Of a stretch of DNA of 64,000 bases, positions 8,374 through 58,783 are shown one piece after another (the first letter of the stretch is position 1; every line of letters begins with the position of its first letter). Below the pieces are notes generated by a model. The model had not been told where the DNA came from. It did no database searches and was given only the letters and a program-made list of their open reading frames with translations. The position numbers and the translations under genes are program-made. Source of the stretch: Paracoccaceae bacterium (lineage in GTDB: Bacteria > Pseudomonadota > Alphaproteobacteria > Rhodobacterales > Rhodobacteraceae); assembly GCA_024742575.1 (NCBI GenBank), contig JANSYF010000001.1, positions 1 through 64,000 on the forward strand, in the 5' to 3' direction.

Positions 8374-9689
8374 TGGATCCGATCCTACTTGGTGGCATCG
8401 TCGCGATCGCGACAATCATGGTGCTTTTCTCCGGCGTTTCTGTTGCACTCGGACTGCTGATCGTTTCAGCTGGTTTCTTGCTGATCTTCGATGGTCTGCG
8501 CTCGCTTGAGCTGATCCCCGAGATTCTTTTTGGTAAGCTCGACAACTTTGCGCTCCTGTCGATCCCGATGTTTATCATCATGGGTTCGTCAATTGCATCG
8601 ACCAGAGCAGGTGCCGACCTTTACGAAGCCCTTGAACGTTGGCTGACCCGCGTGCCTGGCGGTTTGGTGATCTCCAACTTGGGTGCCTGCGCGCTGTTTG
8701 CGGCGATGTCCGGGTCCAGCCCGGCCACTTGTGCTGCGATTGGTAAAATGGGCATCCCCGAGATGCGCAAGCGTGGCTATCCCGATGGTGTGGCGGCGGG
8801 TTCCATCGCGGCAGGCGGGACACTGGGCATCCTGATCCCGCCATCTGTGACGATGATCGTCTACGGTATTGCAACGGAAACTTCGATTGGCCGCCTGTTT
8901 CTTGCTGGCGTTTTGCCGGGCCTTTTGCTTGTGGCGCTTTTTATGGCGTGGTCGCTCTATTCAACGTGGAGGTCGGGCGACAAGCAGTTGTTGTCAGCAG
9001 GTAATTACACTTGGAAAGAGAAGTTCGAAATCCTACCGCGTGTTTTGCCTTTTTTAGCGATCATTGTCGGCGTTCTCTACGCCATGTATGGCGGCATCGC
9101 GACACCCTCTGAGACGGCTGCAGTTGGCGCACTTCTTTGCCTGCTTATCGCCATGATCATCTACAAGCTGTGGAACCCCAAGGACCTTTGGTTAGTTCTG
9201 CGGGACAGCACCAAGGAAAGCGTGATGATCATGTTCATCATAGCAGCCGCTGGTGTGTTCTCATACATGCTGTCGAGCCTGTTCATCACGCAAGCGATTG
9301 CGGAATGGATCGGGACTTTGGACGTAAACCGCTGGGTGCTGATGACCTTTGTCATGCTGTTCCTTTTGGTTGCTGGGTTCTTCTTGCCGCCGGTGGCTGT
9401 GATCCTGATGGCTGCGCCAATCCTATTACCGATCATCACAACAGCCGGTTTCGATCCGATCTGGTTCGCGGTTGTTCTGACGATCAACATGGAGATTGGA
9501 CTCATATCGCCACCGGTGGGCTTGAACCTTTACGTGATCAACGGCATCGCACCGGATATCTCGCTCAAGACCATTCTGAAAGGGTCGCTACCGTTTGTTG
9601 CCTGCATGGTGATCGCCATCATCCTGCTCTGCTTCTTTCCTGGCATTGCGACATGGTTGCCTGACTTCGTGATGGGGGAAGCGGTATGA
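8373..9689 (+). CDS. TRAP transporter large permease (DctM type)
   Basis: A 438-residue, very hydrophobic protein of the DctM/ion-transporter superfamily with about twelve transmembrane segments. Family-typical stretches are SIPMFIIMGSSIASTRAGAD, MSGSSPATCAAIGKMGIPEM, IAAGGTLGILIPPSVTMIVY and NMEIGLISPPVGLNLYVING. It forms the transport channel with the DctQ subunit just upstream and uses a cation gradient to import the probable malonate ligand. Its stop overlaps the start of the malonyl-CoA decarboxylase gene (ATGA), tying the transporter to malonate metabolism. Confidence 0.92.
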   Translation: MDPILLGGIVAIATIMVLFSGVSVALGLLIVSAGFLLIFDGLRSLELIPEILFGKLDNFALLSIPMFIIMGSSIASTRAGADLYEALERWLTRVPGGLVISNLGACALFAAMSGSSPATCAAIGKMGIPEMRKRGYPDGVAAGSIAAGGTLGILIPPSVTMIVYGIATETSIGRLFLAGVLPGLLLVALFMAWSLYSTWRSGDKQLLSAGNYTWKEKFEILPRVLPFLAIIVGVLYAMYGGIATPSETAAVGALLCLLIAMIIYKLWNPKDLWLVLRDSTKESVMIMFIIAAAGVFSYMLSSLFITQAIAEWIGTLDVNRWVLMTFVMLFLLVAGFFLPPVAVILMAAPILLPIITTAGFDPIWFAVVLTINMEIGLISPPVGLNLYVINGIAPDISLKTILKGSLPFVACMVIAIILLCFFPGIATWLPDFVMGEAV

Positions 9690-10933
9690 GCTACTTCAGC
9701 GGCTTGATTTCGACGGTTTTCGAGCGGCGCTATCGCAAGGCGCTTTCAGATGAAGTCGATGGTAGAACAACCTCCGAGCTCTGTGAGGCGCTGCTGAGCA
9801 GTCATGGGGAGGTGTCAGGCACTACACTGGCACGCAACCTGCTTGATCGCTATGCGGCGATGGGCTCTGATGAGAAAACAGAGTTCTTCAAGTTCATGAC
9901 ACATGAGCTTGAAATTGACCCTGCCGACGTCATCAGCACACTGAACGCTTACAAGGACAAACCCGGTAAAGGCACCTATCGTGCCTTTGCCGCAGCCTGC
10001 GAGCCGCAACGTCAGGAGTTGGCAAGACGGCTAAATCAAGTGCCGGGCGCTACGGGCCAGTTGGTTCAGATGCGCAAGGACTTGCTGGGCTTGATGAAAG
10101 AGCACCCGGACTTTGAACCTCTGGATGTGGACTTCAGGCACCTGTTTGCATCCTGGTTCAACAGAGGTTTCCTGGTTCTGCGTCCGATTGATTGGGGCAG
10201 TCCGGCTGAGATTCTTGAGAAGATCATTGCATATGAAGCAGTGCATGAAATCGACAGCTGGGATGACTTGCGGCGGAGACTGAAACCCACCGACCGCCGC
10301 TGCTTTGGCTTCTTTCATCCGTCGATGGCCGACGAACCACTCATCTTCGTAGAAGTTGCTTTCACCAAGGGTGTACCAAGCTCGGTTCAAGACTTGCTCG
10401 CAGATGAACGCGATGAGATCCGGGCGGAAGACGCTGATACCGCCGTGTTCTATTCAATTTCAAACTGTCAGTCGGGTCTTGCGGGTATCTCCTTTGGCAA
10501 CTCGTTGATCAAACAGGTCGTTTCTGACCTCTCGAAAGACCTGCAAAACCTCTCGACATTTGTGACCCTGTCACCAATCCCCGGCATGAATAAATGGCTG
10601 GGCGGAACACAGCTGGGCGCTGCAACGGCCGCCGACAATCAGGCATTGGCTGCTCATTACCTTCTGGAAGGCAAGAGATCGGACGGTATGCCGTATGATC
10701 CGGTTGCACGGTTTCACCTTGGCAATGGAGCGATGGTACACGCTGTCCATGCCGAAGCTGACGTGTCACCCAATGGTCGCAAACAATCAAACGGGGCCAT
10801 GGTCAACTACCTCTACGACCTCACTCAAATCTCACAAAACCACGAACAATTCGTAGGTGAAAAGACAGTGGTCGCATCTGCCGCAGTGAAGGCACTGAGC
10901 CGGTCGATAGCCGCGAAAAGCCAAGGAGATTAA
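9686..10933 (+). CDS. matA: Malonyl-CoA decarboxylase
   Basis: The 415-residue protein matches the MCD family along its length. The N-terminal helical domain ends near LRPIDWGSPAEILEKIIAYE. The GNAT-like catalytic domain has CFGFFHPSMADEPLIFVEVA, LSPIPGMNKWL and the active-site region ARFHLGNGAMVHAVH. It converts malonyl-CoA to acetyl-CoA and CO2 in the cytosol. With the synthetase downstream and the transporter upstream it completes malonate to acetyl-CoA. It overlaps the DctM gene by four bases and is followed by matB after two bases. Confidence 0.94.
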   Translation: MSYFSGLISTVFERRYRKALSDEVDGRTTSELCEALLSSHGEVSGTTLARNLLDRYAAMGSDEKTEFFKFMTHELEIDPADVISTLNAYKDKPGKGTYRAFAAACEPQRQELARRLNQVPGATGQLVQMRKDLLGLMKEHPDFEPLDVDFRHLFASWFNRGFLVLRPIDWGSPAEILEKIIAYEAVHEIDSWDDLRRRLKPTDRRCFGFFHPSMADEPLIFVEVAFTKGVPSSVQDLLADERDEIRAEDADTAVFYSISNCQSGLAGISFGNSLIKQVVSDLSKDLQNLSTFVTLSPIPGMNKWLGGTQLGAATAADNQALAAHYLLEGKRSDGMPYDPVARFHLGNGAMVHAVHAEADVSPNGRKQSNGAMVNYLYDLTQISQNHEQFVGEKTVVASAAVKALSRSIAAKSQGD

Positions 10934-10935
10934 TC

Positions 10936-12453
10936 ATGGCAAACCCTTTGTTTGATGCTCTTTTCGGTAAACACCAAGGCAAGACAACGCCGTTTCTTGA
11001 GTTGGCGGATGGCACGATCATTGCGCACAACGACTACCTTGAGCTTGCAGCGCAATATGCGCATGTGTTCACACAGCTTGGCGTCAAGTCGGGCGATCGC
11101 GTTGCGGCCCAGATAGGAAAATCTCCGCAAGCTCTTGCCGTCTACGCGGCATGTGTCCAAGCCGGCATCGTGTTCTTGCCCTTGAATACCGCGTACACGC
11201 CAGATGAAGTTTCGTACTTTGTCGAAAACAGCGGCGCGCGGGTGATGCTTTGCGATGGCAAACGATCCGAAGCGCTGGAGCCGATTGCAAAGGCAACGGG
11301 TGCAATTCTCGAGACACTGAACAACGATGGAAGCGGCAGCTTTACAATGCAGGCTAAGGCCATGCCATCCGCATTCCCAACTGTCGATCGAACTGAAGAC
11401 GATTTAGCGGCATTTCTTTATACGTCGGGGACAACAGGACGCTCTAAGGGAGCGATGTTGACACAAGGCAACCTACTTTCGAATTGCGAAGCCCTGGCAG
11501 AGGAATGGGAATTCACATCTGAAGACGTTCTTATTCACGCGCTACCGATTTTTCACACACACGGTTTGTTTGTGGCTACGAACATTTCGCTACTGGCGGG
11601 CAGCAAGATCTTCTTCATGCCCAAGTTCGACTTGGATGTCATTATCGATCGGATGCCGACAGCGACAACAATGATGGGCGTGCCAACATTCTATACCCGA
11701 CTTCTGGAAGATGAGCGTTTCACCAAAGAGTTGGCGCAGGACATGCGGCTGTTCGTTTCTGGCAGCGCACCACTTCTCGCAGAGACACATGTGCAATTCG
11801 AACAGCGTACCGGCCACCGTATTCTGGAACGCTACGGCATGACCGAAACCAACATGAATACGTCAAACCCATACAGGGGAGAACGTCGCGCTGGCACAGT
11901 TGGCTTCCCGCTGCCTCGCGTCGAGATCAAGATCACCGACAGCAAATCCGGAGCAACCTTACCTCAGGGCGAAATCGGCGAAATTGAGGTGCGCGGTCCA
12001 AACGTGTTCAAAGGCTATTGGCAAATGCCAGAGAAAACAGCCGCAGAGCTGCGTGCGGATGGCTTCTTCATCACTGGTGACCTTGGGCGGATCGATGAAG
12101 ACGGCTATCTGCACATCGTCGGCCGCAACAAAGATCTGATCATCTCTGGTGGCTACAACATTTACCCTAAAGAGATCGAGCTTCTGTTGGATGATGAAGA
12201 TGGCGTTCTAGAAAGCGCCGTCGTCGGTGTGCCGCATCCCGACTTTGGCGAAACGGTTATCGGGGTGCTTGTTGCGGAATCCGGCGCAGAGCTCGACCTT
12301 GACGCAATCAAGAAAAATATCGGGTCGTCGCTTGCACGCTTCAAACACCCGCAAAAGCTGGTCGTGTTGCCAGAACTGCCGCGCAACACAATGGGCAAAG
12401 TGCAAAAGAAAGCATTGCGCGATGCCTACAAGGACCTGTTTGCGCCCGCTTGA
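10936..12453 (+). CDS. matB: Malonyl-CoA synthetase (malonate-CoA ligase)
   Basis: A 505-residue ANL-superfamily enzyme. The phosphate loop is [16 protein letters not shown] (about 155-170), the adenylate-binding motif is [10 protein letters not shown], and the hinge and C-terminal motifs are [20 protein letters not shown] and [13 protein letters not shown], where the Lys is the catalytic lysine for adenylation. The length and context next to malonyl-CoA decarboxylase identify it as MatB, which makes malonyl-CoA from malonate, CoA and ATP. AAGGAG lies before the ATG. It is the last intact gene of the operon. Confidence 0.93.
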
Positions 12454-13082: not shown

Positions 13083-14991
13083 CGCTGTTGTCCTCTGCGC
13101 CGTCGCTTTGTGATGTTTCGTCTGTCGGCGCGGGATCTGCAATACTTTCCAGCGTTGTTTCTGTCTCTTCCACCGGTTCAGGACGCCGCAACTTGAATTC
13201 GATGCGGCGGTTGGCCTCTCGGCCTTCTTCGGTGTCGTTGGTGGCGATGGGTTGTTCCTCGCCGTAGCCCCGCACTTCGTAGCTGGCGGTCAGAACGCGG
13301 CGTTGGCGCAGCGCATCGACCACCGCTTGTGCGCGTTCTTGGCTCAACTGTTGGTTCATCACCTCACGCCCTTGGCTGTCGGTGTGGCCCGCGATCACGA
13401 GGGGGATGTCGCCACAAAGCTGCAACAGCTCTGCGATCTCGTCCATGATATCTTGCGTGGCGGAGTCGAGGGTCGCCGACCCCGGCTCAAAGGTGATTTT
13501 GCGGTCGCCTATGATCTCGACAATCTGGGCTTCGCATTCTTCGGGTGTCGGAATGCCCAGTAGCGGATCAAGCTTTTCCTCGTAAGTCACCTCGATCTCG
13601 AACAATTCGCTTTCGCCCAATTTGTCGGCCAAGAGGCCCGCTATGTCGGAACTGGCATTCTGGTTTCCGGTAATGCCGGTGATCGACAGTGCGTCAGGGG
13701 TCACCACGACCACGCCATTCGACAGGCGCGACAGCGCTTCCAATCCAGCAAGAACGCGGCTGGACCAGTTTGCCGGCAGCGTTTCATCGACACGCGCGGT
13801 GGTGCGTACGGTGGATGAGCCAAACGCGGCACGGGCAAAGCTATCCGCGGTTTGACGGGCGATTTCGCTGTTGATGCGACCGCGCAATTGCACATCGCCT
13901 TCAGGACTACGCGTAGCGGTGAATTCGGGAATACCTTCGGGCGCAGCTTCGGGGGGCGTTGGCAGGGTGGCGTTGACCACGAAAACGTCCGGCAGATCGG
14001 TTTCAAGCGCGCCAACAACCCGGTCGAACAATGACTGGTCCGTGCCCTCGAGCGCGAAAAGTGTCACGTCAGCGTCTGCAAAAGTGATGTTTCCGCCGCC
14101 AAGTTGAACAATCGCGCTGATGCCCATTGCGGCTGCCGATCCCCATTCGTTGGTCGGTGTCCCAAGGCCAAGGCGACAGTCCAGTTTGCCTTCCATTCCC
14201 GCCGCCGCAGCCGCTTTGAGGATTTCGGTACGGTCATCTTCTGTGGGGGCGGCGCACGCATCGAACCGCACACCGTCAGCATCCTTGATAAAGCGCAAGG
14301 TGAACGGGGAAATGACAGGTCGCGGTGCGGTGATGTCAAGCGCAAGACGCAGGTCATTGCCCGCGCGGCGGGCCAGATCAGCTTCGACCCGGAGACGGGC
14401 ATCTTCGTTTGCGGCGGCGCCTTTTATGGCCACACGGCCCGCCTCGATCGAAATCTTAGAGCGGTCCAGAACGCGCAGCACGGACACCGCATAATCCAGC
14501 GCGTCCTCCAGTCCGTCTGGTACCGGGTATTCTGCGGTTTCCAGAAGGTCGGACACTGGTACGTCCGGCACGGCGCGGGTGATGTCTTCTAGCAATTGTT
14601 CGCGATCGACGGCCGCAGGTAAAAGCCCGATCATCGACACGCCGGTGTCATTGCGAAGCAGTTCGACCGAGAAGCGGGGCGGTGCGATACCGTCACTGTC
14701 GATAATGTCGATCTGGTCGATGACGCGGGCAGAATCAACAACACGTCCCGCCGCGCTAAGAGCTTGAAACCGCGCGGCTTCGGTTGGTGCGGTTCCGATC
14801 AAAAAGACCAGCAATCCGTCGGTGTCGACATCGGCCCATGTGAGGGCATCACGGTCCAATTCAGTGCGCACAGCCCGCTCAGAGCTTTCCTCGACAGCAC
14901 CTGCGGCGACCCAAGCGGCCCCAACACTGAGGACCGAAGCTATGGCAAAGGCACAAAAGAGGATGAAAACAGAAGACAGGCGCATCAACAT
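13069..14991 (-). CDS. Large OmpA-family (OmpA/MotB C-domain) envelope protein
   Basis: The product has 640 residues. An N-terminal hydrophobic segment (VFILFCAFAIASVLSVGAAW) serves as signal or anchor. A long middle region with BON-like repeats follows (e.g. LPANWSSRVLAGLEALSRLS, then VTPDALSITGITGNQN). The C-terminal OmpA peptidoglycan-binding domain is at about 495-605 (LVIAGHTDSQGREVMNQQLS; EEGREANRRIEFKL). The NRRIEF motif holds the Arg that contacts diaminopimelate. A Glu/Asp-rich tail follows. It probably links membrane and cell wall. Start could be the first or third codon (MLM). There is no clear Shine-Dalgarno sequence. Confidence 0.85.
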   Translation of the reverse strand: MLMRLSSVFILFCAFAIASVLSVGAAWVAAGAVEESSERAVRTELDRDALTWADVDTDGLLVFLIGTAPTEAARFQALSAAGRVVDSARVIDQIDIIDSDGIAPPRFSVELLRNDTGVSMIGLLPAAVDREQLLEDITRAVPDVPVSDLLETAEYPVPDGLEDALDYAVSVLRVLDRSKISIEAGRVAIKGAAANEDARLRVEADLARRAGNDLRLALDITAPRPVISPFTLRFIKDADGVRFDACAAPTEDDRTEILKAAAAAGMEGKLDCRLGLGTPTNEWGSAAAMGISAIVQLGGGNITFADADVTLFALEGTDQSLFDRVVGALETDLPDVFVVNATLPTPPEAAPEGIPEFTATRSPEGDVQLRGRINSEIARQTADSFARAAFGSSTVRTTARVDETLPANWSSRVLAGLEALSRLSNGVVVVTPDALSITGITGNQNASSDIAGLLADKLGESELFEIEVTYEEKLDPLLGIPTPEECEAQIVEIIGDRKITFEPGSATLDSATQDIMDEIAELLQLCGDIPLVIAGHTDSQGREVMNQQLSQERAQAVVDALRQRRVLTASYEVRGYGEEQPIATNDTEEGREANRRIEFKLRRPEPVEETETTLESIADPAPTDETSQSDGAEDNSDGQN

Positions 14992-24496: not shown

Positions 24497-24519
24497 GTGA
24501 AAATTTCTTTTGAATTTTC
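24497..24519. promoter_or_regulatory. Inverted repeat upstream of the XRE-cupin operon
   Basis: TGAAAATT and AATTTTCA form perfect 8-base arms around TCTTTTG, 48 bases before the GTG of the regulator. Two related half-sites follow (ATGAAATTCC at 24532, GAAATTTC at 24547). This cluster looks like an autoregulatory operator for the XRE protein, and the region also serves the divergent 24-residue peptide. Binding is inferred. Confidence 0.45.
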
Positions 24520-24566
24520 ATCAAACCGTGTCATGAAATTCCAAGCAGAAATTTCACGGGCGAGTC

Positions 24567-25139
24567 GTGCAGCACGATCCGGTTCTTCACAGCAAGACGC
24601 TTGGCGCGGACCTTCGGGCGCTGCGCAAGGCGCGTGGGCTGACGCTTCAGGATATCGCGGATCGGCTGGGGCGCTCGGTGGGGTGGGTCAGCCAGATCGA
24701 ACGCGATCTTTCCGAGCCGTCGATCACCGACCTGCGCCACATCGCCAAGCTATTCGATGTGCCTGTGTCGCTGCTCTTTGGCACGCCACAGGCAGCGGCC
24801 GACGAGGCGGGTTACGTGGTGCGCGCCGGAGCGCGGCGACCCATCGGCAGTGGCGATAGCGGTCTGGTCGAAGAACTTTTGTCACCTGACCTGTCGGACG
24901 ATTTCGAGGTGGTGCATTCAACCTTCCAACCGCACAGCCGCATCGGTGAAGTGGTCACCCGACCAACACAGGAGGTGGGCTATATCCTGTCGGGTAAGCT
25001 CGATCTGATTATCAGCGACCGGCGTTTCACCCTGACCCCTGGCGACAGTTTCAGGATCAAGGCTGAACCGTTCGAATGGATCAACCCCTATGAAGACCCC
25101 GCCATGGCGATCTGGGTCATTGCGCCTCCGGTGTATTGA
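24567..25139 (+). CDS. XRE-family regulator with C-terminal cupin sensor
   Basis: A 190-residue protein with a helix-turn-helix at about residues 12-66 (LGADLRALRKARGLTLQDIA, then DRLGRSVGWVSQIERDLSEP) and a C-terminal cupin_2 domain at about 110-188 (EVGYILSGKLDLIISDRRFT, then PGDSFRIKAEPFEWINP). This XRE-cupin layout is used by PuuR-type regulators and others that sense small amines or amino acids. The start is a GTG. Its stop overlaps the start of the GFA gene, so it is the first gene of a seven-gene operon that it probably controls. Confidence 0.88.
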   Translation: MQHDPVLHSKTLGADLRALRKARGLTLQDIADRLGRSVGWVSQIERDLSEPSITDLRHIAKLFDVPVSLLFGTPQAAADEAGYVVRAGARRPIGSGDSGLVEELLSPDLSDDFEVVHSTFQPHSRIGEVVTRPTQEVGYILSGKLDLIISDRRFTLTPGDSFRIKAEPFEWINPYEDPAMAIWVIAPPVY

Positions 25140-25543
25140 TGAGCGACGCATCCCCCTCCGGCCCGGTATCCCTGACAGGAAGTTGCCTTTGCGGCGCTGT
25201 CACCTATACCGCCCATGGCGCGGCGGGGGCGCCTGCGGCCTGTCATTGCACCCAATGCCGCAAGCAATCGGGCCATGTTTGGGCGTCCTCCTACGTGCCC
25301 GACGGCACTCTTGAAATCAGGGGCGAGGTGCGCTGGTATCAGTCCTCGCCAAAAGCCAAGCGCGGGTTTTGTCCGACCTGCGGTTCGGCGTTGTTCTGGG
25401 ACCACGAGGACGACCCCTACATCTGTTTCTCGACAGGCTCCATCGACGGGCCGACTGGATTGACCCTGCGCGGTCACATCCACACCAAAACCAAGGGCGA
25501 TTACTACGAGATTAATCCCAACGACCCGCAGCGGCTGGACTGA
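25139..25543 (+). CDS. GFA-family zinc protein (glutathione-dependent formaldehyde-activating type)
   Basis: The 134-residue protein carries the cysteine pattern of the GFA/CENP-V family: GSCLCGAVTY, then CHCTQCRKQSGHVW, then GFCPTCGSALFWD, enough for two zinc sites. GFA proteins are named for condensing formaldehyde with glutathione, although most homologues are untested. The ATG overlaps the regulator stop (TGATG). Its place in an operon with formaldehyde-releasing demethylase-like enzymes makes a one-carbon role attractive, which is inference. Confidence 0.85.
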   Translation: MSDASPSGPVSLTGSCLCGAVTYTAHGAAGAPAACHCTQCRKQSGHVWASSYVPDGTLEIRGEVRWYQSSPKAKRGFCPTCGSALFWDHEDDPYICFSTGSIDGPTGLTLRGHIHTKTKGDYYEINPNDPQRLD

Positions 25544-25546
25544 CAA

Positions 25547-26170
25547 ATGCTTGACCTGGCCCTCTCCATTCCACTTTGGACCTACATCACCTTCATGGGT
25601 GCCGCGCTTGTGCTCTATATTACCCCCGGCGCAGACATGATGTTCACGCTGGCAAGCGGCATGCGCGGCGGCGCGCGGTCGGGGATGGCGGCCGCGGCGG
25701 GCATCGGATTGGGTGTGATGGGTCATGTGGTGATTGCTGCGGCAGGTCTTGCGGTGCTGCTGCTCACCTACCCTATCGCCTATGACGCGCTGCGCTATGC
25801 GGGGGCGGCCTATCTGCTCTGGCTGGCCTACCATACATGGACCGACACATCCGATCCGGCCCGCCGCGAGGGGCGCAGCGACACATGGCGCGCGTTTCGT
25901 CGTGGTTTTCTGACCAACATCCTGAACCCGAAGGTGGGCCTGTTCGTATTGGCCTTCCTGCCGCAATTCGCCGACCCTGCGCTTGGCCCGATCTGGGAAC
26001 AGATTCTGATCCTCGGCACGCTTCTCGCGTTTGGGGAACTTACTGTCTACTGCGTGCTCGGCGGGTTCGCCGGGCTGGCCGCAGCCCGCATCCAACGCGC
26101 GTCCGGCTGGATCAACAAACTTTCCGCAATCGTAATTGGCGGGCTCGCGCTACGCCTGGCTTGGAACTGA
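25547..26170 (+). CDS. LysE/RhtB-family exporter
   Basis: A 207-residue inner-membrane protein with about six transmembrane helices and LysE-family features: YITPGADMMFTLASGMRGGA near residue 25 (the GPxP-like region), FRRGFLTNILNPKVGLFVLA near 110, and a final helix after INKLSAIVIGG. LysE proteins export amino acids and related metabolites. It starts three bases after the GFA stop and ends 11 bases before the first FAD/GcvT gene, so it is part of the operon and may export an amino acid or methylated amine intermediate. Confidence 0.87.
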   Translation: MLDLALSIPLWTYITFMGAALVLYITPGADMMFTLASGMRGGARSGMAAAAGIGLGVMGHVVIAAAGLAVLLLTYPIAYDALRYAGAAYLLWLAYHTWTDTSDPARREGRSDTWRAFRRGFLTNILNPKVGLFVLAFLPQFADPALGPIWEQILILGTLLAFGELTVYCVLGGFAGLAAARIQRASGWINKLSAIVIGGLALRLAWN

Positions 26171-26181
26171 GGAGACCAAAC

Positions 26182-28620
26182 ATGTCCGATTTCCCCACCA
26201 CCACCCGCGTCGTCATCATCGGCGGCGGCGTCGTTGGCGCATCCTGCGCCTATCACATTGCAAAGGCGGGTTGGGATTGCGTGCTTCTGGAGAAGAACGA
26301 ACTGACTGCCGGGTCTACATGGCATGCGGCAGGCAACTGTCCGTCCTTCAGCAGCTCATGGGCGGTGATGAACATGCAACGGTATTCGCTGGAGCTTTAT
26401 CGCGGGCTTGCCGACGAGGTGGATTATCCAATGAATTACCACGTCACCGGGTCCATCCGACTGGCACACAGCAAAGAACGGATGCAGGAATTCGAACGCG
26501 CTCGCGCCATGGGCCGGTATCAGGGTCTCGACCTCGAGATGATGGCGGTCTCGGACATGAAAGACCGCTACCCTTTTATGGAAACGCACGATCTTGCCGG
26601 TGGTCTTTATGACCCTGACGATGGCGACATCGACCCGGCGCAGCTCACGCAGGCGCTGGCCAAAGGTGCGCGTCAGATGGGCGCGAAAATCGAACGCTTC
26701 TGCCCCGCGACAGGCGTGACACGCAAGGGTGACGAGTGGATCGTGCACACCGAAAAGGGTGACATCACCTGCGAGAAAGTGGTGAACGCTGCGGGTTACT
26801 ATGCCCAGCGCGTCGGTGAATGGTTCAAGCCCTATGGCGGGCGCACCGTTCCGATGACCGTGATGAGTCACCAGTATTTCCTGACCGAACCGGTGCCTGA
26901 GTTGGAAGCGTGGTCGAAGGAAAACGGCAAGCTGCCGCTACTGCGCGATGTGGACAGCTCGTACTACCTGCGGCAGGAAAAGTACGGTTTGAACCTTGGA
27001 CCGTACGAACGGAACTGTAAGGCGCATTGGGTCACCCCGGACGACACGATGCCAGATGATTTCAGCTTCCAGCTATACCCAGACGATCTGGAACGTCTCG
27101 AATGGTATATCGAAGACGCAATGGCCCGCGTGCCGATCCTTGGCGCGTCGGGTGTCGGTCGCGTCATCAACGGACCGATCCCCTATGCGCCCGATGGCCT
27201 GCCGCTCATCGGCCCGATGCCGGGTGTGCCCAACGCGTTCGAGGCTTGTGTGTTCACCTTCGGCATCACGCAAGGCGGCGGTGCGGGTAAGGTGCTGGCC
27301 GAATGGGTCACCGAAGGCCAGACCGAATGGGATATGTGGGCGGTCGATCCGCGCCGGTACACCGACTACGCCGATCAGGACTATTCCGATCAAAAGGCGA
27401 TCGAGGTCTATGGCCACGAATACGCCATGCATTTCCCCCGTCACGCATGGCCTGCGGGGCGCGACAAGAAGCTGTCACCGGTGCATGACAAGATTATCGC
27501 GGCAGGCGGTGTGATGGGTGCCTATAACGGCTGGGAACGCGCCAACTGGTTCGCGCAGCCGGGCGATGACACCTCCGAGGAAGCAACCCAGACTTGGGCG
27601 CGTTCCGGTCCGTGGCAGCAGCGCATCAAGGAAGAATGCGAAGCCGTGCGCGATGCGGCTGGCGTGGTCGCCATTTCAGGCTTCACCCGACTGGCGGTCG
27701 AAGGCCCCGGAGCGCGCGCGCATGTCGATGCACTCACCTGTTCATCCCTGCCGAAACCGGGGCGCGTGGGTCTGGCTTATTTTCCCGACGATCGGGGCCG
27801 CATCCTGACCGAGATGTCGGTGATCCCGCAAAGCGACGATGCGATCTGGCTGATCACCGCCGCCGTCGCTCAATGGCACGACCGTGACGTTTTGCTGCGT
27901 GATCTGCCCGAGGGAGTGACCGTGCAGGACCGCACGACGAAATACGAATGCTTCCTTGTGACCGGGCCTAAATCCCGCGAGATGCTCGCGCCTTTGACGG
28001 ATGCCGACCTGACCTTGCCTTGGCTGTCCTACCAAGAGGCGCAGGTCTGCGGCAAATCCTGCGTCCTGTTGCGCGTGTCGTTTGCGGGTGAATTGGGATG
28101 GGAGGTGCACTGCCTGACCGAGGATGCGCCCGAAATCTACGACGCCATTCTGGGGGCAGGGGCAAAACCGTTTGGCATGTATGCGCTCAACGCGCTGCGG
28201 ATCGAAAAGGGCTACCGCGCGTGGAAGGGTGATCTGTCGACCGACTATACCTTGCTGCAAGGCGGGCTGGATCGTTTTGTAAAACTCGACAAGCCCCAAG
28301 ATTTTCCCGGCAAAGCGGCTTTGCAAAGCGAAAAACAGCAGGGCGTGACGAAACGCTTTGTGACCTTGACCGTCGATGCGGGCGAGTCTGATGCACCCTA
28401 CATGTCGACGCTCTGGCATGACGGACAGGTCGTCGGCGAAACGACCAGCGGGGACTGGGGCTACCGGGTGAACACCTCAATCGCGCTGGGCATGCTGCGC
28501 GCCGAACTTGCGGTGCCCGGTACGGAACTTGAAATCGACATCTACGGAGACATGCGCAAGGCGATCGTACAGAATGATGAGCCCCTCTGGGATCCGCAAA
28601 ACGAACGGCTGCGTGCCTAA
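26182..28620 (+). CDS. FAD-dependent dimethylglycine/sarcosine dehydrogenase-like protein with GcvT domain (1)
   Basis: The 812-residue protein starts at the ATG at 26182 (GGAG just upstream), not at the ORF-track start inside lysE. The N-terminal DAO domain has VVIIGGGVVGASCAYHIAKA (FAD binding) and AGSTWHAAGN, where His48 matches the covalently flavinylated His of dimethylglycine dehydrogenase. An FAO middle domain follows (TYNGWERANWF-like region near 450). The C-terminal half is a GcvT/aminomethyltransferase fold (about 480-812; SFAGELGWEVHCL, LRIEKGYRAWKGDLSTDYTL) that binds tetrahydrofolate in relatives. It should oxidatively demethylate an N-methyl amine, passing the carbon to folate or releasing formaldehyde. 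Confidence 0.87.
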   Translation: MSDFPTTTRVVIIGGGVVGASCAYHIAKAGWDCVLLEKNELTAGSTWHAAGNCPSFSSSWAVMNMQRYSLELYRGLADEVDYPMNYHVTGSIRLAHSKERMQEFERARAMGRYQGLDLEMMAVSDMKDRYPFMETHDLAGGLYDPDDGDIDPAQLTQALAKGARQMGAKIERFCPATGVTRKGDEWIVHTEKGDITCEKVVNAAGYYAQRVGEWFKPYGGRTVPMTVMSHQYFLTEPVPELEAWSKENGKLPLLRDVDSSYYLRQEKYGLNLGPYERNCKAHWVTPDDTMPDDFSFQLYPDDLERLEWYIEDAMARVPILGASGVGRVINGPIPYAPDGLPLIGPMPGVPNAFEACVFTFGITQGGGAGKVLAEWVTEGQTEWDMWAVDPRRYTDYADQDYSDQKAIEVYGHEYAMHFPRHAWPAGRDKKLSPVHDKIIAAGGVMGAYNGWERANWFAQPGDDTSEEATQTWARSGPWQQRIKEECEAVRDAAGVVAISGFTRLAVEGPGARAHVDALTCSSLPKPGRVGLAYFPDDRGRILTEMSVIPQSDDAIWLITAAVAQWHDRDVLLRDLPEGVTVQDRTTKYECFLVTGPKSREMLAPLTDADLTLPWLSYQEAQVCGKSCVLLRVSFAGELGWEVHCLTEDAPEIYDAILGAGAKPFGMYALNALRIEKGYRAWKGDLSTDYTLLQGGLDRFVKLDKPQDFPGKAALQSEKQQGVTKRFVTLTVDAGESDAPYMSTLWHDGQVVGETTSGDWGYRVNTSIALGMLRAELAVPGTELEIDIYGDMRKAIVQNDEPLWDPQNERLRA

Positions 28621-29036
28621 TGCAAAACCGTCCCGCCCGCAGTCCAGACTGGCAAGACTGCCATAAAGGCCCGATCGCGCCGCGCCACGCGACGGCGCGG
28701 CAGGCCTTTGAGACTGGCTTTGACAGCTTGCCGGGTTGGGTCGGTTTGGCCCTGCGCGGACGGGACCGCGTCGTCAAACCTTTTGGCCTTGCAACCGTTT
28801 CGGATAGAGACCTGTCGATGACGTCCCTCCCGGTTCTGGAAGAGACGCCAAACACCTACGAGGTCGGGGTCGAAGACTCGCATCTGACCTTCACCTTGCA
28901 AACCAATCTGGACCACGGGATCGTGTCTGTCATCACGCGCATCTGGTTCAGTCATTGGATGGGTCGGTTTTACCTTGCCACCGTGCTTTTGCCGCACAAA
29001 TACATCCTGCGACACGCAATAAGGGCTTTGGCATGA
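28620..29036 (+). CDS. DUF2867 domain protein
   Basis: A 138-residue protein whose stretches FETGFDSLPGWVGLALRGRD and LPVLEETPNTYEVGVEDSHL match the DUF2867 family (SRPBCC-like) as I remember it. No function is known for the family. The ATG overlaps the TAA of the preceding dehydrogenase gene (TAATG) and its stop overlaps the start of the next gene (ATGA). It is thus locked between two enzymes of N- or S-methyl group transfer and may be a small binding or helper protein for them. Confidence 0.75.
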   Translation: MQNRPARSPDWQDCHKGPIAPRHATARQAFETGFDSLPGWVGLALRGRDRVVKPFGLATVSDRDLSMTSLPVLEETPNTYEVGVEDSHLTFTLQTNLDHGIVSVITRIWFSHWMGRFYLATVLLPHKYILRHAIRALA

Positions 29037-29950
29037 CACAAATTACACTTCTCGACGGTGGTATGGGGCAGGAACTGATCCGCCGCGTTGGCAAGGCGAC
29101 ACCGCTTTGGTCGACACAGGCGCTGATTGATAAACCGGGGCTTGTTGCCGAGGTGCACGCCGATTACGCGGATGCCGGAGCATCCGTGGCGACAACCAAT
29201 TCCTACGCCCTGCACCGCGACCGTCTTCGAGGCGGTGCAAGCAATCACTACGCATCCGATGGTATTGAGCTTGCCAATATTGAGGACCAGCTTGAACCGC
29301 TTTGCAAAGCTGCGCTGAAAGAGGCTGCAACCGTTCGTGATCGCAGCCGGGTGGCCGCGTCTATCGGGCCGCTGGCTGCCAGTTATCGCCCGGACTTACA
29401 CCCCGATTTCGATTCTGCGGTTCCGCTTTATGCCGAGGTTGCAAAATTTCTGGCACCCGGCAGCGATGTGCTCTTGTTTGAAACCATCGCATCCGTCGAC
29501 GCCGCGCGCGCCTGCCTCGCGGCGGGTCGCCAAACAGATCGCCCGGTCTGGCTTGCCTTTACCGTTGACGACGAAGACGGCAGTAAATTGCGTTCGGGTG
29601 AGCCGATGGCAGAGGCGGCGGCAATCGCTGCGCAAGCCGATGCCGCACTAGCCAATTGTTCGGCCCCCGAAGCCATGCCTGCAGCGCTAGCCGCTTTGGC
29701 CGCAGCCAACGTACCGATGGGTGCCTATGGCAACGCGTTCAAGATGATCACCAAAGCGTTCATCGAAGGCGGCACGACCGCTGACAACTTGCCCACACGC
29801 GAAGACATGACGCCAGACGTCTATGCCACCCATGCCATGGCATGGGTCGATCAGGGTGCGACCCTCATCGGCGGATGCTGTGAAACCGGGCCTGCCCACA
29901 TTTCTGAAATCGCCCGAAGGCTGACCGCCGCAGGGCACACAATCGTCTGA
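29033..29950 (+). CDS. Homocysteine S-methyltransferase family protein (betaine-homocysteine type)
   Basis: The 305-residue barrel protein begins TQITLLDGGMGQEL, typical of the S-methyltransferase family, and has the three zinc cysteines: Cys209 in LANCSAPEAM and Cys282-Cys283 in IGGCCETGPAHI. TNSYALHRDRL near residue 55 is a further family motif. Such enzymes move a methyl group from betaine, S-methylmethionine or similar donors to homocysteine, giving methionine. The start is the ATG at 29033, overlapping the DUF2867 stop. Between two dimethylglycine dehydrogenase-like genes, a betaine-type donor is plausible, as its product would be dimethylglycine. Confidence 0.86.
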   Translation: MTQITLLDGGMGQELIRRVGKATPLWSTQALIDKPGLVAEVHADYADAGASVATTNSYALHRDRLRGGASNHYASDGIELANIEDQLEPLCKAALKEAATVRDRSRVAASIGPLAASYRPDLHPDFDSAVPLYAEVAKFLAPGSDVLLFETIASVDAARACLAAGRQTDRPVWLAFTVDDEDGSKLRSGEPMAEAAAIAAQADAALANCSAPEAMPAALAALAAANVPMGAYGNAFKMITKAFIEGGTTADNLPTREDMTPDVYATHAMAWVDQGATLIGGCCETGPAHISEIARRLTAAGHTIV

Positions 29951-29971
29951 CACTTCACCGGAGTTCTTGTC

Positions 29972-32416
29972 ATGCCCATACCCACACATGCCCGCGCCGT
30001 CATCATCGGTGGTGGTGTCATCGGTTGTTCCGTTGCCTACCACTTGACCAAGCTGGGCTGGACCGATGTGGTGCTGCTGGAACGTAAGCAGCTGACGTCA
30101 GGCACGACATGGCATGCGGCAGGATTGATCGGGCAATTGCGGGCGTCATCCAACATGACGAAGCTGGCAAAATACACAGCCGATCTTTATTCGACCATCG
30201 AAGAGGAAACCGGCGTTGCCACCGGGTTCCGCAAAGTAGGGTCAATCTCGGTTGCATTGACCACTGAACGTCACGAAGAATTGCGCCGTACCGCAGGGAT
30301 GGCACGGGCCTTTGGCGTGCCTGTCGAAGAAATCGACACAGCCGAGATCAAACGGAAATACGCACATCTGAACACCAGCGATGTCGTGGGTGGTGTCTAT
30401 TTGCCCAGCGATGGCCAAGGCGATCCGGCCAACATCGCGCTGGCGATGGCCAAGGGCGCGCGGCAGCGCGGAGCGCAAATTTTCGAGCGGACAAAGGCCA
30501 CCAAAGTCACACGTGACTGGCAGCGGATCACGTCTGTCGACTGGGCGTCAGAAGATGGCACCAGCGGCACCATAACCTGTGATCACGTCGTCAATTGCGC
30601 AGGGATGTGGGGCCGTGAGGTTGGTCAGATGCTGGGCGTGAACGTGCCACTTCAGGCGTGCGAGCATTTTTACATTGTTTCCGAACCCATCCCTGGCCTT
30701 GAGGCTTTGCCGGTACTGCGCGTGCCGGATGAATGCGCCTATTACAAAGAAGACGCCGGCAAGATGATGCTGGGCGCATTCGAGCCCAAGTCAAAGCCCT
30801 GGGGAATGAGCGGTATTCCCGAAAGTTTTGAATTCGATCAGCTGCCCGAGGATTTCGACCATTTCGAGCCGATCTTGGAGGCGGCCGTGAACCGGATGCC
30901 GATGCTGGCCGAAGCGGGAATTCACACGTTTTTCAACGGGCCGGAAAGCTTTACCCCCGACAATGCCTATTACCTTGGCCAAGCCCGCGAGATGGATAAT
31001 GTCTGGGTCGCCGCCGGATTTAACTCAATCGGCATCCAGTCGGCGGGCGGAGCGGGTATGGCGCTGGCGCAATGGATGGAAGACGGGGCCAAGCCGTTCG
31101 ATCTGGGCGATGTGGACATTGCCCGCGAACAACCTTTCCAGCGCAACCGCCGCTATCTGAAGGAGCGGGTGACAGAGACTTTGGGTCTTCTTTACGCCGA
31201 CCATTATCCGTACCGGCAAAAGGCCACCGCCCGCGGTGTGCGCCGCACGCCATTCCATCAGCAGCTTTTGGAGCGCGGCGCGGTGATGGGGGAAATCGCA
31301 GGTTGGGAGCGTGCGAACTGGTACGCGACCGAAGGTCAGACACCCGAATACGCCTATAGTTGGAAGCGGCAAAATTTCTTTGAAAACGTCGCGCATGAAC
31401 ACAGAGCGATCCGCGAAAATGTCGGCATGTATGACATGTCCTCCTTTGGTAAACTGCGGGTGGAGGGACCGGACTCTGAGGCGTTTTTGAACTTTGTCTG
31501 TGGCGCGGATATGTCGGTACCGGTGGGCAAGATCGTCTACACCCAGTTTCTGAACATGCGCGGCGGAATAGAGGCAGATGTCACAGTAACCCGCCTGTCT
31601 GAAACGTGCTTCCTTGTCGTAACACCGGCTGCCACGCGCGCCGCAGATCAGACTTGGCTGCAACGCCATGTGGGCGACCACCGAGTGGTCATCACTGATG
31701 TGACGGCAGGCGAAGCTGTGCTTGCCGTGATGGGACCAAATGCGCGCAAGGTTATCCAGTCTGTGTCACCCAATGAATTCTCGAACGAGGCTAACCCTTT
31801 TGGGACTGCGCAAGAAATCGAGATCGGCCTTGGCACGGCGCGGGTGCACAGGGTGTCCTATGTCGGAGAGCTGGGCTGGGAGATCTACATCTCTGCCGAT
31901 CAGGCCGGGCATGTGTTCGAGACGCTTTGGGAGACAGGACAGGATCATGGCCTGACCCTGTGTGGAATGCATGCTATGGACACTTGCCGGATCGAAAAGG
32001 CGTTCCGCCATTTTGGCCATGATATCACCTGCGAGGATCATGTTCTGGAGGCCGGGTTGGGCTTTGCCGTGAAAACTGCAAAACCTGATTTCATCGGACG
32101 CGATGCGGTTTTGCAAAAGCGCGAGACCGGTTTGCAAACCCGGATGGTGCAGTTCCGCCTGACCGACCCCGAGCCGCTGCTCTATCACCACGAACCGATC
32201 CTGCGGGATGGGGAGATTGTTGGCTACCTGAGTTCCGGTGCATATGGACACCATCTGGGCGGTGCCATCGGCATGGGATACGTGCCGTGTGTGGGTGAAA
32301 CTGCGGAGAAGGTGTTGGCGTCGACCTATGAGATCGATGTCGCAGGCGTGCGGGTCAAAGCAGAAGCTTCGCTCAGACCGATGTATGATCCGACGTCAGC
32401 GCGGGTGCGAGGGTAG
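29972..32416 (+). CDS. FAD-dependent dimethylglycine/sarcosine dehydrogenase-like protein with GcvT domain (2)
   Basis: An 814-residue paralogue of the protein at 26182 with the same architecture. It has VIIGGGVIGCSVAYHLTKLG for FAD, GTTWHAAGLIGQLRAS with His48 as likely covalent FAD site, and NCAGMWGREVGQM. A GcvT half shows YVGELGWEIYISADQAGHVF and MDTCRIEKAFRHFGHDITCE. It is closer than copy 1 to classical dimethylglycine/sarcosine dehydrogenases (e.g. GLIGQLRASSNMTKLAKYTA). Two such enzymes in a row could handle successive demethylations, for example dimethylglycine then sarcosine. It ends the operon and a paired palindrome follows the stop. Confidence 0.89.
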   Translation: MPIPTHARAVIIGGGVIGCSVAYHLTKLGWTDVVLLERKQLTSGTTWHAAGLIGQLRASSNMTKLAKYTADLYSTIEEETGVATGFRKVGSISVALTTERHEELRRTAGMARAFGVPVEEIDTAEIKRKYAHLNTSDVVGGVYLPSDGQGDPANIALAMAKGARQRGAQIFERTKATKVTRDWQRITSVDWASEDGTSGTITCDHVVNCAGMWGREVGQMLGVNVPLQACEHFYIVSEPIPGLEALPVLRVPDECAYYKEDAGKMMLGAFEPKSKPWGMSGIPESFEFDQLPEDFDHFEPILEAAVNRMPMLAEAGIHTFFNGPESFTPDNAYYLGQAREMDNVWVAAGFNSIGIQSAGGAGMALAQWMEDGAKPFDLGDVDIAREQPFQRNRRYLKERVTETLGLLYADHYPYRQKATARGVRRTPFHQQLLERGAVMGEIAGWERANWYATEGQTPEYAYSWKRQNFFENVAHEHRAIRENVGMYDMSSFGKLRVEGPDSEAFLNFVCGADMSVPVGKIVYTQFLNMRGGIEADVTVTRLSETCFLVVTPAATRAADQTWLQRHVGDHRVVITDVTAGEAVLAVMGPNARKVIQSVSPNEFSNEANPFGTAQEIEIGLGTARVHRVSYVGELGWEIYISADQAGHVFETLWETGQDHGLTLCGMHAMDTCRIEKAFRHFGHDITCEDHVLEAGLGFAVKTAKPDFIGRDAVLQKRETGLQTRMVQFRLTDPEPLLYHHEPILRDGEIVGYLSSGAYGHHLGGAIGMGYVPCVGETAEKVLASTYEIDVAGVRVKAEASLRPMYDPTSARVRG

Positions 32417-32417
32417 C

Positions 32418-32471
32418 CAGAAACTTCGTACGAAGTTTCTGCAGTGGCAGGATTTTCATACGAAAATCCTG
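32418..32471 (+). repeat. Paired palindromes after the demethylase operon
   Basis: A perfect 24-base palindrome centred on ACTTCGTACGAAGT (32418-32441) is followed after six bases by arms CAGGATTTTC/GAAAATCCTG around ATAC (32448-32471). It begins two bases after the TAG of the last operon gene. The same design, with TTCGTACGAA at the centre, recurs at 57420. It likely acts as a transcription end or mRNA-stabilising structure. Confidence 0.75.
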
Positions 32472-57419: not shown

Positions 57420-57477
57420 GTTGCAGAAAATTCGTACGAATTTTCTGCAACGCAAGATTATTCGTACGAATAATCTT
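57420..57477. repeat. Paired perfect palindromes between convergent genes
   Basis: A perfect 32-base palindrome (57420-57451, centre AAAATTCGTACGAATTTT) is followed after two bases by a perfect 24-base one (57454-57477, centre TATTCGTACGAATA). Both are centred on TTCGTACGAA, as is the first element at 32418. They fill the gap between the small protein and preA, whose stop touches the second. A bidirectional terminator is likely. Confidence 0.8.
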
Positions 57478-58783
57478 ACTCAGCCGCCTGCGCCACTGCA
57501 GGGTTGTTCGGGTGGGTCGTCCAATCCCCATGCTCTGCTTCAACCGGACGGCCTGTCCGCTCATCAACGGCACCAGCCACTAGTTCTTCCATCGTGATGC
57601 AGGCCTCCACCGGACACACATTCACACACAGATTACAGGCCACACATTCGTCATCTTTGACCGTGAACACACGGTCCTCCGACATGGCAATCGCTTGATG
57701 CGAAGTATCCTCGCAGGCCGCGAAACAACGACCGCAGGAAATACACATATCCTGATTGATCCGCGCCTTGGTCACGTAATTCAGGTTCAGATTCTGCCAG
57801 TCACTGATATTCGGAACCGCCCGCCCGATCAGATCAGACGTCGATGCCAGTCCCTTTTCATCAAGATATTGCGACAGCCCTGAAACCATCTCTTGAACAA
57901 TTTTGAAGCCATAGGTCATTGCAGCCGTACAGACCTGCACATTACCCGCGCCCAGCGCCATGAACTCGGCCGCATCCTTCCATGTGGTAACGCCACCAAT
58001 GCCCGAAATCGGCAAACCACGCATCTCGGGAGACCGCGCAATCTCAGCCACCATGTTCAGTGCGATCGGTTTGACCGCAGGCCCACAATAGCCGCCATGT
58101 GCGCCCTTGCCGTCAATCGTCGGCTCTGGCGCGAACAGGTCAAGATCGACCGATGTAATGGAATTGATGGTGTTGATCAGACTCACCGCATCGGCACCAC
58201 CAGCATGCGCTGCCATAGCAGGTTTGCGAATGTCGGTGATATTCGGCGTCAGCTTCACGATACAGGGCATGCGCGTGTTCTGTTTCACCCAACGCGTGAC
58301 CATTTCGATATACTCTGGCACCTGACCGACGGCCGACCCCATCCCTCGCTCGGACATGCCGTGCGGGCAACCGAAGTTCAGTTCGACCCCATCCGCGCCA
58401 GTCTCTTCGACCAGCGGCAGAATCGCCTTCCAAGCCTCTTCAACACAAGGCACCATCAGCGACACGACCATCGCGCGGTCGGGATAGTCCCGCTTAACAG
58501 ACTTGATCTCACGCAGGTTCGCTTCCAAAGGCCGATCGGTGATCAGTTCAATGTTGTTAAGTCCCAAGAGCCGCCGATCCGCACCCCAGATCGCGCCATA
58601 GCGGGGCCCGTTCACGTTCACGACGGGTGGCCCAGCCTCGCCCAGCGTCTTCCAGACGACGCCGCCCCAGCCTGCCTCAAAAGCGCGGCGAACGTTGTAT
58701 TCCTTGTCCGTAGGTGGCGCCGAGGCAAGCCAGAACGGGTTCGGGCTTTTGATGCCCACGAAATCGGTTGTCAGGTCAGCCAT
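57476..58783 (-). CDS. preA: NAD-dependent dihydropyrimidine dehydrogenase subunit PreA
   Basis: A 435-residue protein with a class I/II dihydroorotate-dehydrogenase-like FMN barrel (about 5-315; VELNFGCPHGMSERGMGSAV, VKLTPNITDIRKPAMAAHAG, GLPISGIGGVTTWKDAAEFM). A two-cluster ferredoxin domain follows (CISCGRCFAACED and CVACNLCVNVCPVEA, about 335-385). It reduces uracil and thymine to dihydropyrimidines. The ATG at 58783 is set by GGGAGG. The ORF-track start is two codons longer. Downstream of preT in one operon. Confidence 0.95.
   Translation of the reverse strand: MADLTTDFVGIKSPNPFWLASAPPTDKEYNVRRAFEAGWGGVVWKTLGEAGPPVVNVNGPRYGAIWGADRRLLGLNNIELITDRPLEANLREIKSVKRDYPDRAMVVSLMVPCVEEAWKAILPLVEETGADGVELNFGCPHGMSERGMGSAVGQVPEYIEMVTRWVKQNTRMPCIVKLTPNITDIRKPAMAAHAGGADAVSLINTINSITSVDLDLFAPEPTIDGKGAHGGYCGPAVKPIALNMVAEIARSPEMRGLPISGIGGVTTWKDAAEFMALGAGNVQVCTAAMTYGFKIVQEMVSGLSQYLDEKGLASTSDLIGRAVPNISDWQNLNLNYVTKARINQDMCISCGRCFAACEDTSHQAIAMSEDRVFTVKDDECVACNLCVNVCPVEACITMEELVAGAVDERTGRPVEAEHGDWTTHPNNPAVAQAAE

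What the first reader, a model, noticed from the sequence alone, without database searches (positions are those of the whole stretch)
24497..32471. Seven-gene XRE-cupin operon that looks like a methylated-amine demethylation system
Seen: regulator, GFA zinc protein, LysE exporter, FAD/GcvT enzyme 1, DUF2867, homocysteine methyltransferase and FAD/GcvT enzyme 2 follow each other with overlaps or gaps of at most 21 bases. An operator-like inverted repeat precedes them and a paired palindrome closes the unit. Known: dimethylglycine/sarcosine dehydrogenases transfer N-methyl carbon to folate or release formaldehyde, Zn homocysteine methyltransferases use betaine-type donors, and GFA proteins are linked to formaldehyde-glutathione chemistry. 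Inferred: a self-regulated module that strips methyl groups from a betaine-like compound, routes them to methionine and folate, disposes of formaldehyde and exports an end product. DUF2867 and the exporter are not usual parts of the known betaine route.
Basis: partly seen in the sequence, partly recalled or inferred. Interest (0 to 1): 0.72.

Follow-up and report, generated by a model that had tools for sequence, protein, structure and literature searches.

The report
Bacterial operon for stripping N-methyl groups
In a marine Roseobacter-group bacterium (Marivita), seven adjacent genes form a self-regulated unit, shared by most of its relatives, that very probably removes methyl groups one by one from a betaine-like nutrient; its two main enzymes were already predicted in the literature, but its on/off DNA switch and its usual partner enzyme appear not to have been described.

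Summary
In detail: seven same-strand genes (24567-32416) with overlaps or gaps of at most 21 bases. The core is conserved. Of 71 named loci carrying the last gene with enough upstream DNA, 68 have the XRE-cupin regulator, 68 FAD/GcvT enzyme 1, 62 the homocysteine methyltransferase (HMT), 50 GFA and 48 a LysE-type exporter. DUF2867 is a rare insertion (1 of 71). The operator is real: TGAAA-N13-TTTCA occurs upstream of the regulator in 68 of 68 operons, usually as a tandem pair; shuffles reached 2. Both FAD/GcvT enzymes keep the catalytic residues of dimethylglycine dehydrogenase/oxidase. In other alphaproteobacterial families the pair sits next to an MTTB-family methyltransferase (17 of 20 loci), and in two Rhizobiaceae loci next to a Rieske oxygenase. 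This MTTB co-occurs with FAD2 across genera (111 both, 20 and 4 alone, 63 neither). Best reading: stepwise demethylation of a carboxylated quaternary amine, two methyls going to folate. The literature already assigns the R. pomeroyi pair (SPO3396/SPO3400) to sarcosine and dimethylglycine, by prediction. The MTTB partner is not the glycine-betaine type, and three Rhizobium/Agrobacterium loci add an omega-aminotransferase, so the substrate may differ. No activity was tested.

The parts
24498..24520 (.). operator dyad 1, TGAAA-N13-TTTCA
   Evidence: At least one such dyad in 68/68 orthologous promoters (window included); the most repeated dyad in shuffled sets reached 2
24534..24556 (.). operator dyad 2, TGAAA-N13-TTTCA, 36 bp after dyad 1
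   Evidence: 51/68 promoters carry two or more dyads; spacing 39 bp in 33 cases
24567..25139 (+). XRE-cupin transcriptional regulator (GTG start)
   Evidence: HTH_31 and Cupin_2; PuuR-like but below that model's cut-off; 68/71 loci
25139..25543 (+). GFA/CENP-V-type zinc protein
   Evidence: PF04828, 73 bits, cut-off 24.3; 50/71 loci
25547..26170 (+). LysE/RhtB-family exporter
   Evidence: PF01810, 120 bits; a LysE-type gene in 48/71 loci
26182..28620 (+). FAD1: FAD/folate N-demethylating dehydrogenase, closest to mammalian dimethylglycine dehydrogenase
   Evidence: DAO, FAO_M, GCV_T, GCV_T_C; 545 bits to a dimethylglycine dehydrogenase structure; catalytic residues kept; 68/71 loci
28620..29036 (+). 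DUF2867 protein, accessory, predicted helix-grip-like fold
   Evidence: PF11066; model pLDDT 84.5; START/Bet v 1-like matches at Z up to 7.9, at the noise level of the method
29033..29950 (+). homocysteine S-methyltransferase family protein (HMT)
   Evidence: PF02574, 207 bits; three cysteines near-invariant in 66 sequences; 62/71 loci
29972..32416 (+). FAD2: second FAD/folate N-demethylating dehydrogenase
   Evidence: Same architecture; catalytic residues kept; ortholog in about two thirds of 198 Rhodobacteraceae genera
32418..32471 (.). two tandem 24-nt palindromes after the last gene
   Evidence: not seen beyond Marivita

Best explanation
A self-regulated catabolic operon for stepwise N-demethylation of a carboxylated methylated amine of the betaine type. 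The XRE-cupin protein binds the two TGAAA-N13-TTTCA sites in front of its own gene and is released or switched by the substrate or a product (inferred). A quaternary substrate loses its first methyl to an MTTB-type corrinoid methyltransferase, encoded elsewhere in this genome (contig C122), and/or to HMT, which passes the methyl to homocysteine (inferred). The resulting dimethyl and then monomethyl amines are oxidised by the two flavoenzymes, whose C-terminal domains hand the carbon to tetrahydrofolate (residues conserved; reaction inferred). GFA may catch stray formaldehyde and the LysE protein may export an amino-acid product (both weak inferences). The most likely single substrate series is glycine betaine, dimethylglycine, sarcosine, glycine, but the evidence does not fix it.
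For: Core conserved in 68/71 loci. Operator in 68/68 and in six more distant loci. DMGDH-type architecture with flavin-linkage His, active-site His and Tyr, and folate-site Asp (FAD2) or Glu (FAD1, as in rat DMGDH). Same FAD1-FAD2 pair beside MTTB in other families, beside a Rieske oxygenase related to betaine demethylases, and beside EtfAB, FolD and PurU in Paracoccus seriniphilus and Agrobacterium. FAD2-MTTB co-occurrence 111/20/4/63. Literature: SPO3396 and SPO3400 named sarcosine and DMG dehydrogenase by prediction (PMC4744692); SPO3398 is annotated homocysteine S-methyltransferase (PMC4809877), matching the gene order in a R. pomeroyi genome.
Against: No biochemical or expression data for these genes. 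The detached MTTB gene carries the operator in only 1 of 20 genomes tested, so it is mostly not in the same regulon. The genome holds five other FAD/GcvT fusions that could serve glycine betaine. The MTTB partner is not the glycine-betaine type. HMT fits no curated betaine family. The co-occurrence test ignores shared ancestry.
Confidence: 0.72

Rival explanations
1. The substrate is not glycine betaine but another betaine that yields an omega-amino acid, for example beta-alanine betaine; FAD1 and FAD2 act on its dimethyl and monomethyl forms.
For: In one Rhizobium and two Agrobacterium plasmids the pair is followed by an AptA-type omega-aminotransferase (714-715 bits, cut-off 500, in the two intact copies; a broken third copy). 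The MTTB partner is about 25% identical to this genome's glycine-betaine-like MTTB and scores only 188 bits to a solved glycine betaine methyltransferase against 379 bits for the other.
Against: The aminotransferase is absent from most loci and may mark a local side branch. Neorhizobium has the pair near carnitine genes, which feed glycine betaine. FAD1 is closest to a true dimethylglycine dehydrogenase among solved structures.
Confidence: 0.25
2. Two independent flavin demethylases for unrelated secondary and tertiary amines, with HMT serving methionine salvage (S-methylmethionine or SAM), so there is no single linear pathway.
For: HMT is nearest the MmuM model (132 bits, cut-off 215) and is missing from 9 of 71 loci. 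HMT evolves and is exchanged faster than its neighbours.
Against: FAD1 and FAD2 are adjacent or nearly so in most fetched loci from many alphaproteobacterial families and share one operator-controlled unit in Rhodobacteraceae.
Confidence: 0.2
3. Chance neighbours or an assembly artefact.
For: The genome is a draft of 126 contigs, 87% complete.
Against: The same order recurs in dozens of isolate genomes.
Confidence: 0.01

Closest known systems
Ruegeria pomeroyi SPO3396-SPO3400 cluster (PMC4744692, PMC4809877)
   Same: Orthologous FAD1, HMT and FAD2 in the same order; predicted in the literature as sarcosine and dimethylglycine dehydrogenase steps
   Different: R. pomeroyi has a zinc dehydrogenase and a GbdR-like AraC regulator inserted and lacks DUF2867. 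The locus tags were matched here by gene order and one annotation, not by the sequence of strain DSS-3.
Mammalian dimethylglycine dehydrogenase and Arthrobacter dimethylglycine oxidase
   Same: Same four-domain architecture and catalytic residues
   Different: 33-37% identity to rat DMGDH; substrate untested
MtgBCD(E) glycine betaine demethylation (PMC12478193)
   Same: Quaternary amine demethylation tied to methionine and folate; MTTB-family enzyme involved
   Different: No corrinoid or pterin protein among the seven genes; partner MTTB is a different clade from this genome's MtgB-like protein; operon HMT is not the MtgE/BHMT-type protein, which is on contig C46
BHMT-DMGDH-SARDH pathway proposed for SAR11 (PMC3160333)
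   Same: One homocysteine methyltransferase-family and two demethylating flavoenzymes
   Different: HMT here fails the BHMT model; genes lie in one operon with XRE-cupin, GFA and LysE

Membership tests
DMGDH/SARDH-type FAD-folate N-demethylases | DAO + FAO_M + GCV_T + GCV_T_C architecture | tested here: met
   Both proteins, above cut-offs
DMGDH/SARDH-type FAD-folate N-demethylases | Covalent-flavin His, active-site His and Tyr, folate-site acid | tested here: met
   Alignment with rat DMGDH and A. globiformis DMGO; roles of the residues are from general knowledge
DMGDH/SARDH-type FAD-folate N-demethylases | Activity on dimethylglycine or sarcosine | not testable with these tools
   Needs enzyme assay
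Betaine-homocysteine methyltransferase (PRK07534) | Score over curated cut-off | tested here: not met
   69 bits against 338
MmuM homocysteine S-methyltransferase (PRK09485) | Score over curated cut-off | tested here: not met
   132 bits against 215
Homocysteine S-methyltransferase superfamily (PF02574) | Family score and three zinc-ligand cysteines | tested here: met
   207 bits; C212, C285, C286 conserved in at least 97% of 66 sequences
MtgBCD glycine betaine system | MTTB, corrinoid and pterin proteins in the unit | tested here: not met
   None of the seven operon genes is of these families; three MTTB genes lie on other contigs
GFA glutathione-formaldehyde family | PF04828 match | tested here: met
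   73 bits, cut-off 24.3
GFA glutathione-formaldehyde family | Formaldehyde-glutathione activity | not testable with these tools
   Needs assay
PuuR regulator | Score over curated cut-off | tested here: not met
   57.5 bits against 211
SRPBCC/START-like fold (DUF2867) | Clear structural match | tested here: inconclusive
   Best Z 7.9; top rows mostly helix-grip proteins but within the range seen by chance

The most novel reading that the evidence does not exclude
The conserved MTTB + FAD1 + FAD2 module is a three-step demethylation pathway for a betaine other than glycine betaine (for example beta-alanine betaine), with an uncharacterised MTTB clade as its first enzyme, interchangeable with a Rieske oxygenase and supplemented in Roseobacter relatives by a new type of homocysteine methyltransferase.
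Probability: 0.3. Interest if true: 0.65.

Novelty: new variant of a known kind. Interest (0 to 1): 0.42.

Why it matters
Methylated amines are abundant algal osmolytes, and Roseobacter-group bacteria are major consumers of them. If right, this gives a widespread operon with a readable DNA switch, names an MTTB clade that deserves a substrate test, and questions whether SPO3396/SPO3400 really are the glycine betaine steps or serve another betaine. It also shows different first-step chemistries attached to the same pair of flavin demethylases.

Tried and rejected
HMT simply replacing MTTB in Rhodobacteraceae: rejected, since some genomes have HMT-FAD2-MTTB side by side (for example G124, G143, G151, G185; coordinates), and most genera with FAD2 also have MTTB. 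MTTB sharing the operator: found in 1 of 20. Regulon search by pattern over 12 genomes: mostly background beyond the operon itself. The folate-site Glu of FAD1 as a sign of lost folate function: rejected, rat DMGDH has the same Glu. Homarine as substrate and DUF2867 in the literature: nothing useful. Beta-alanine betaine degradation papers: none found that address it. Sigma-70 promoter scan at the operator: none found. DUF2867 fold search: no Foldseek match at E <= 0.001.

Full report
Observation. The seven genes are real and tightly packed. The window belongs to a Marivita-like genome: the nearest named loci are Marivita, 94-95% identical for FAD2 protein.

Conservation. A scan with FAD2 returned 80 named loci, nearly all Roseobacter-group. 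In the 71 with at least 8.5 kb upstream of FAD2, the regulator is present in 68, FAD1 in 68, HMT in 62, GFA in 50, a LysE-type exporter in 48, a zinc dehydrogenase in 21, a GlxA/GbdR-like regulator in 20 and DUF2867 in 1. The loci were chosen by similarity to FAD2, so they are not a random sample of genomes. In 198 genera of the family drawn evenly, 131 have a FAD2 ortholog by my reading of the list.

Switch. TGAAA-N13-TTTCA occurs upstream of the regulator in 68 of 68 operons, window included; the most repeated dyad in five shuffled sets reached 2. Fifty-one have two or more sites, most often 39 bp apart; the window has 36. Consensus CGTGAAAWW...WWTTTCACG. The same site occurs upstream of the regulator in six more distant loci: Paracoccus (two), Rhodobacteraceae bacterium SC52 and three genomes of family f109. 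That the regulator binds it is inferred.

Enzymes. FAD1 scores 545 bits to mammalian DMGDH and FAD2 465; both keep the flavin-linkage histidine, the active-site histidine and tyrosine and the folate-site acid. Five further FAD/GcvT fusions exist in this genome. The one on C30 sits beside genes that I read, without a family search, as a Rieske oxygenase, an enolase-type protein and an aminotransferase.

Partner. In 20 loci taken from other alphaproteobacterial families, 17 carry an MTTB gene of one clade near FAD1. Roseibium and Fluviibacterium have it between FAD1 and FAD2. S. meliloti has it after FAD2. Rhizobium sp. and Neorhizobium have instead a Rieske protein (256-257 bits to GbcA, below its cut-off of 670; about 219 bits to a solved ring-hydroxylating entry, 3vca, that I recall as stachydrine demethylase). 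In this genome the MTTB of that clade stands apart on C122. FAD2 and this MTTB co-occur in 111 genera, 20 have FAD2 only, 4 MTTB only, 63 neither; Fisher p about 1e-28, without correction for shared ancestry.

Substrate. For glycine betaine: published predictions for the R. pomeroyi pair, FAD1's similarity to DMGDH, and carnitine genes near the Neorhizobium copy. Against, or for another betaine: the MTTB partner differs from the glycine-betaine-like MTTB (C95) of the same genome, and an omega-aminotransferase of AptA type follows the pair in three Rhizobium/Agrobacterium loci. PMC12478193 reports that predicted DMG and sarcosine demethylation proteins rise on glycine betaine, choline and carnitine, but the main text does not name the loci.

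HMT. It belongs to the homocysteine methyltransferase superfamily with conserved zinc cysteines but to neither BHMT nor MmuM by curated cut-offs. The BHMT/MtgE-type protein of this genome is on C46 (592 bits). Its role here, as methyl acceptor enzyme or as salvage, is open.

Cassette exchange. Against the Marivita locus L062, DNA identity is 80-93% across most of the operon but 58-68% over the HMT block, with DUF2867 absent from L062. The HMT tree groups the window with Pseudoponticoccus and two unnamed Rhodobacteraceae rather than with Marivita, with 100/99 support. The DUF2867-HMT block was probably exchanged.

Verdict. A real, conserved, self-regulated N-demethylation operon; chemistry class well supported, substrate open, accessory roles guessed.

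Noticed in passing
window 28620-29960: DUF2867-HMT block looks exchanged: 58-68% DNA identity to Marivita L062 over HMT (DUF2867 missing there) while most of the flanking operon is 80-93%; HMT tree agrees.
   Followed up: yes
window 32418-32471 and 57421-57478: Two places with paired palindromes built around TTCGTACGAA or TTCATACGAA, about 30 bp apart; look like a Marivita end-of-gene element.
   Followed up: partly
L028 (G000 contig C30) 215-11420: FAD/GcvT paralog beside what read as a Rieske oxygenase, an enolase/racemase-type protein, an aminotransferase and a TauD-like protein; resembles a proline-betaine cluster (by eye, no family search).
   Followed up: no
L141 (S. meliloti Ak57 pSymB) 9001-11435: FAD2 ortholog is matched in three pieces and not annotated: frameshifted gene or sequencing error.
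   Followed up: no
L187 (Agrobacterium H25/79) 13911-14904: AptA after FAD2 is split in two pieces and unannotated, unlike the intact copies in L143 and L188.
   Followed up: no
L215 (G075), about 248 bp upstream of MTTB: The only detached MTTB of 20 with the XRE-cupin operator upstream, linking it to the regulon in that genome.
   Followed up: partly
L193 6913-9864: A second MTTB (47% to the C79 type) and an N-methyltryptophan-oxidase-like protein directly before FAD1-FAD2-MTTB.
   Followed up: no
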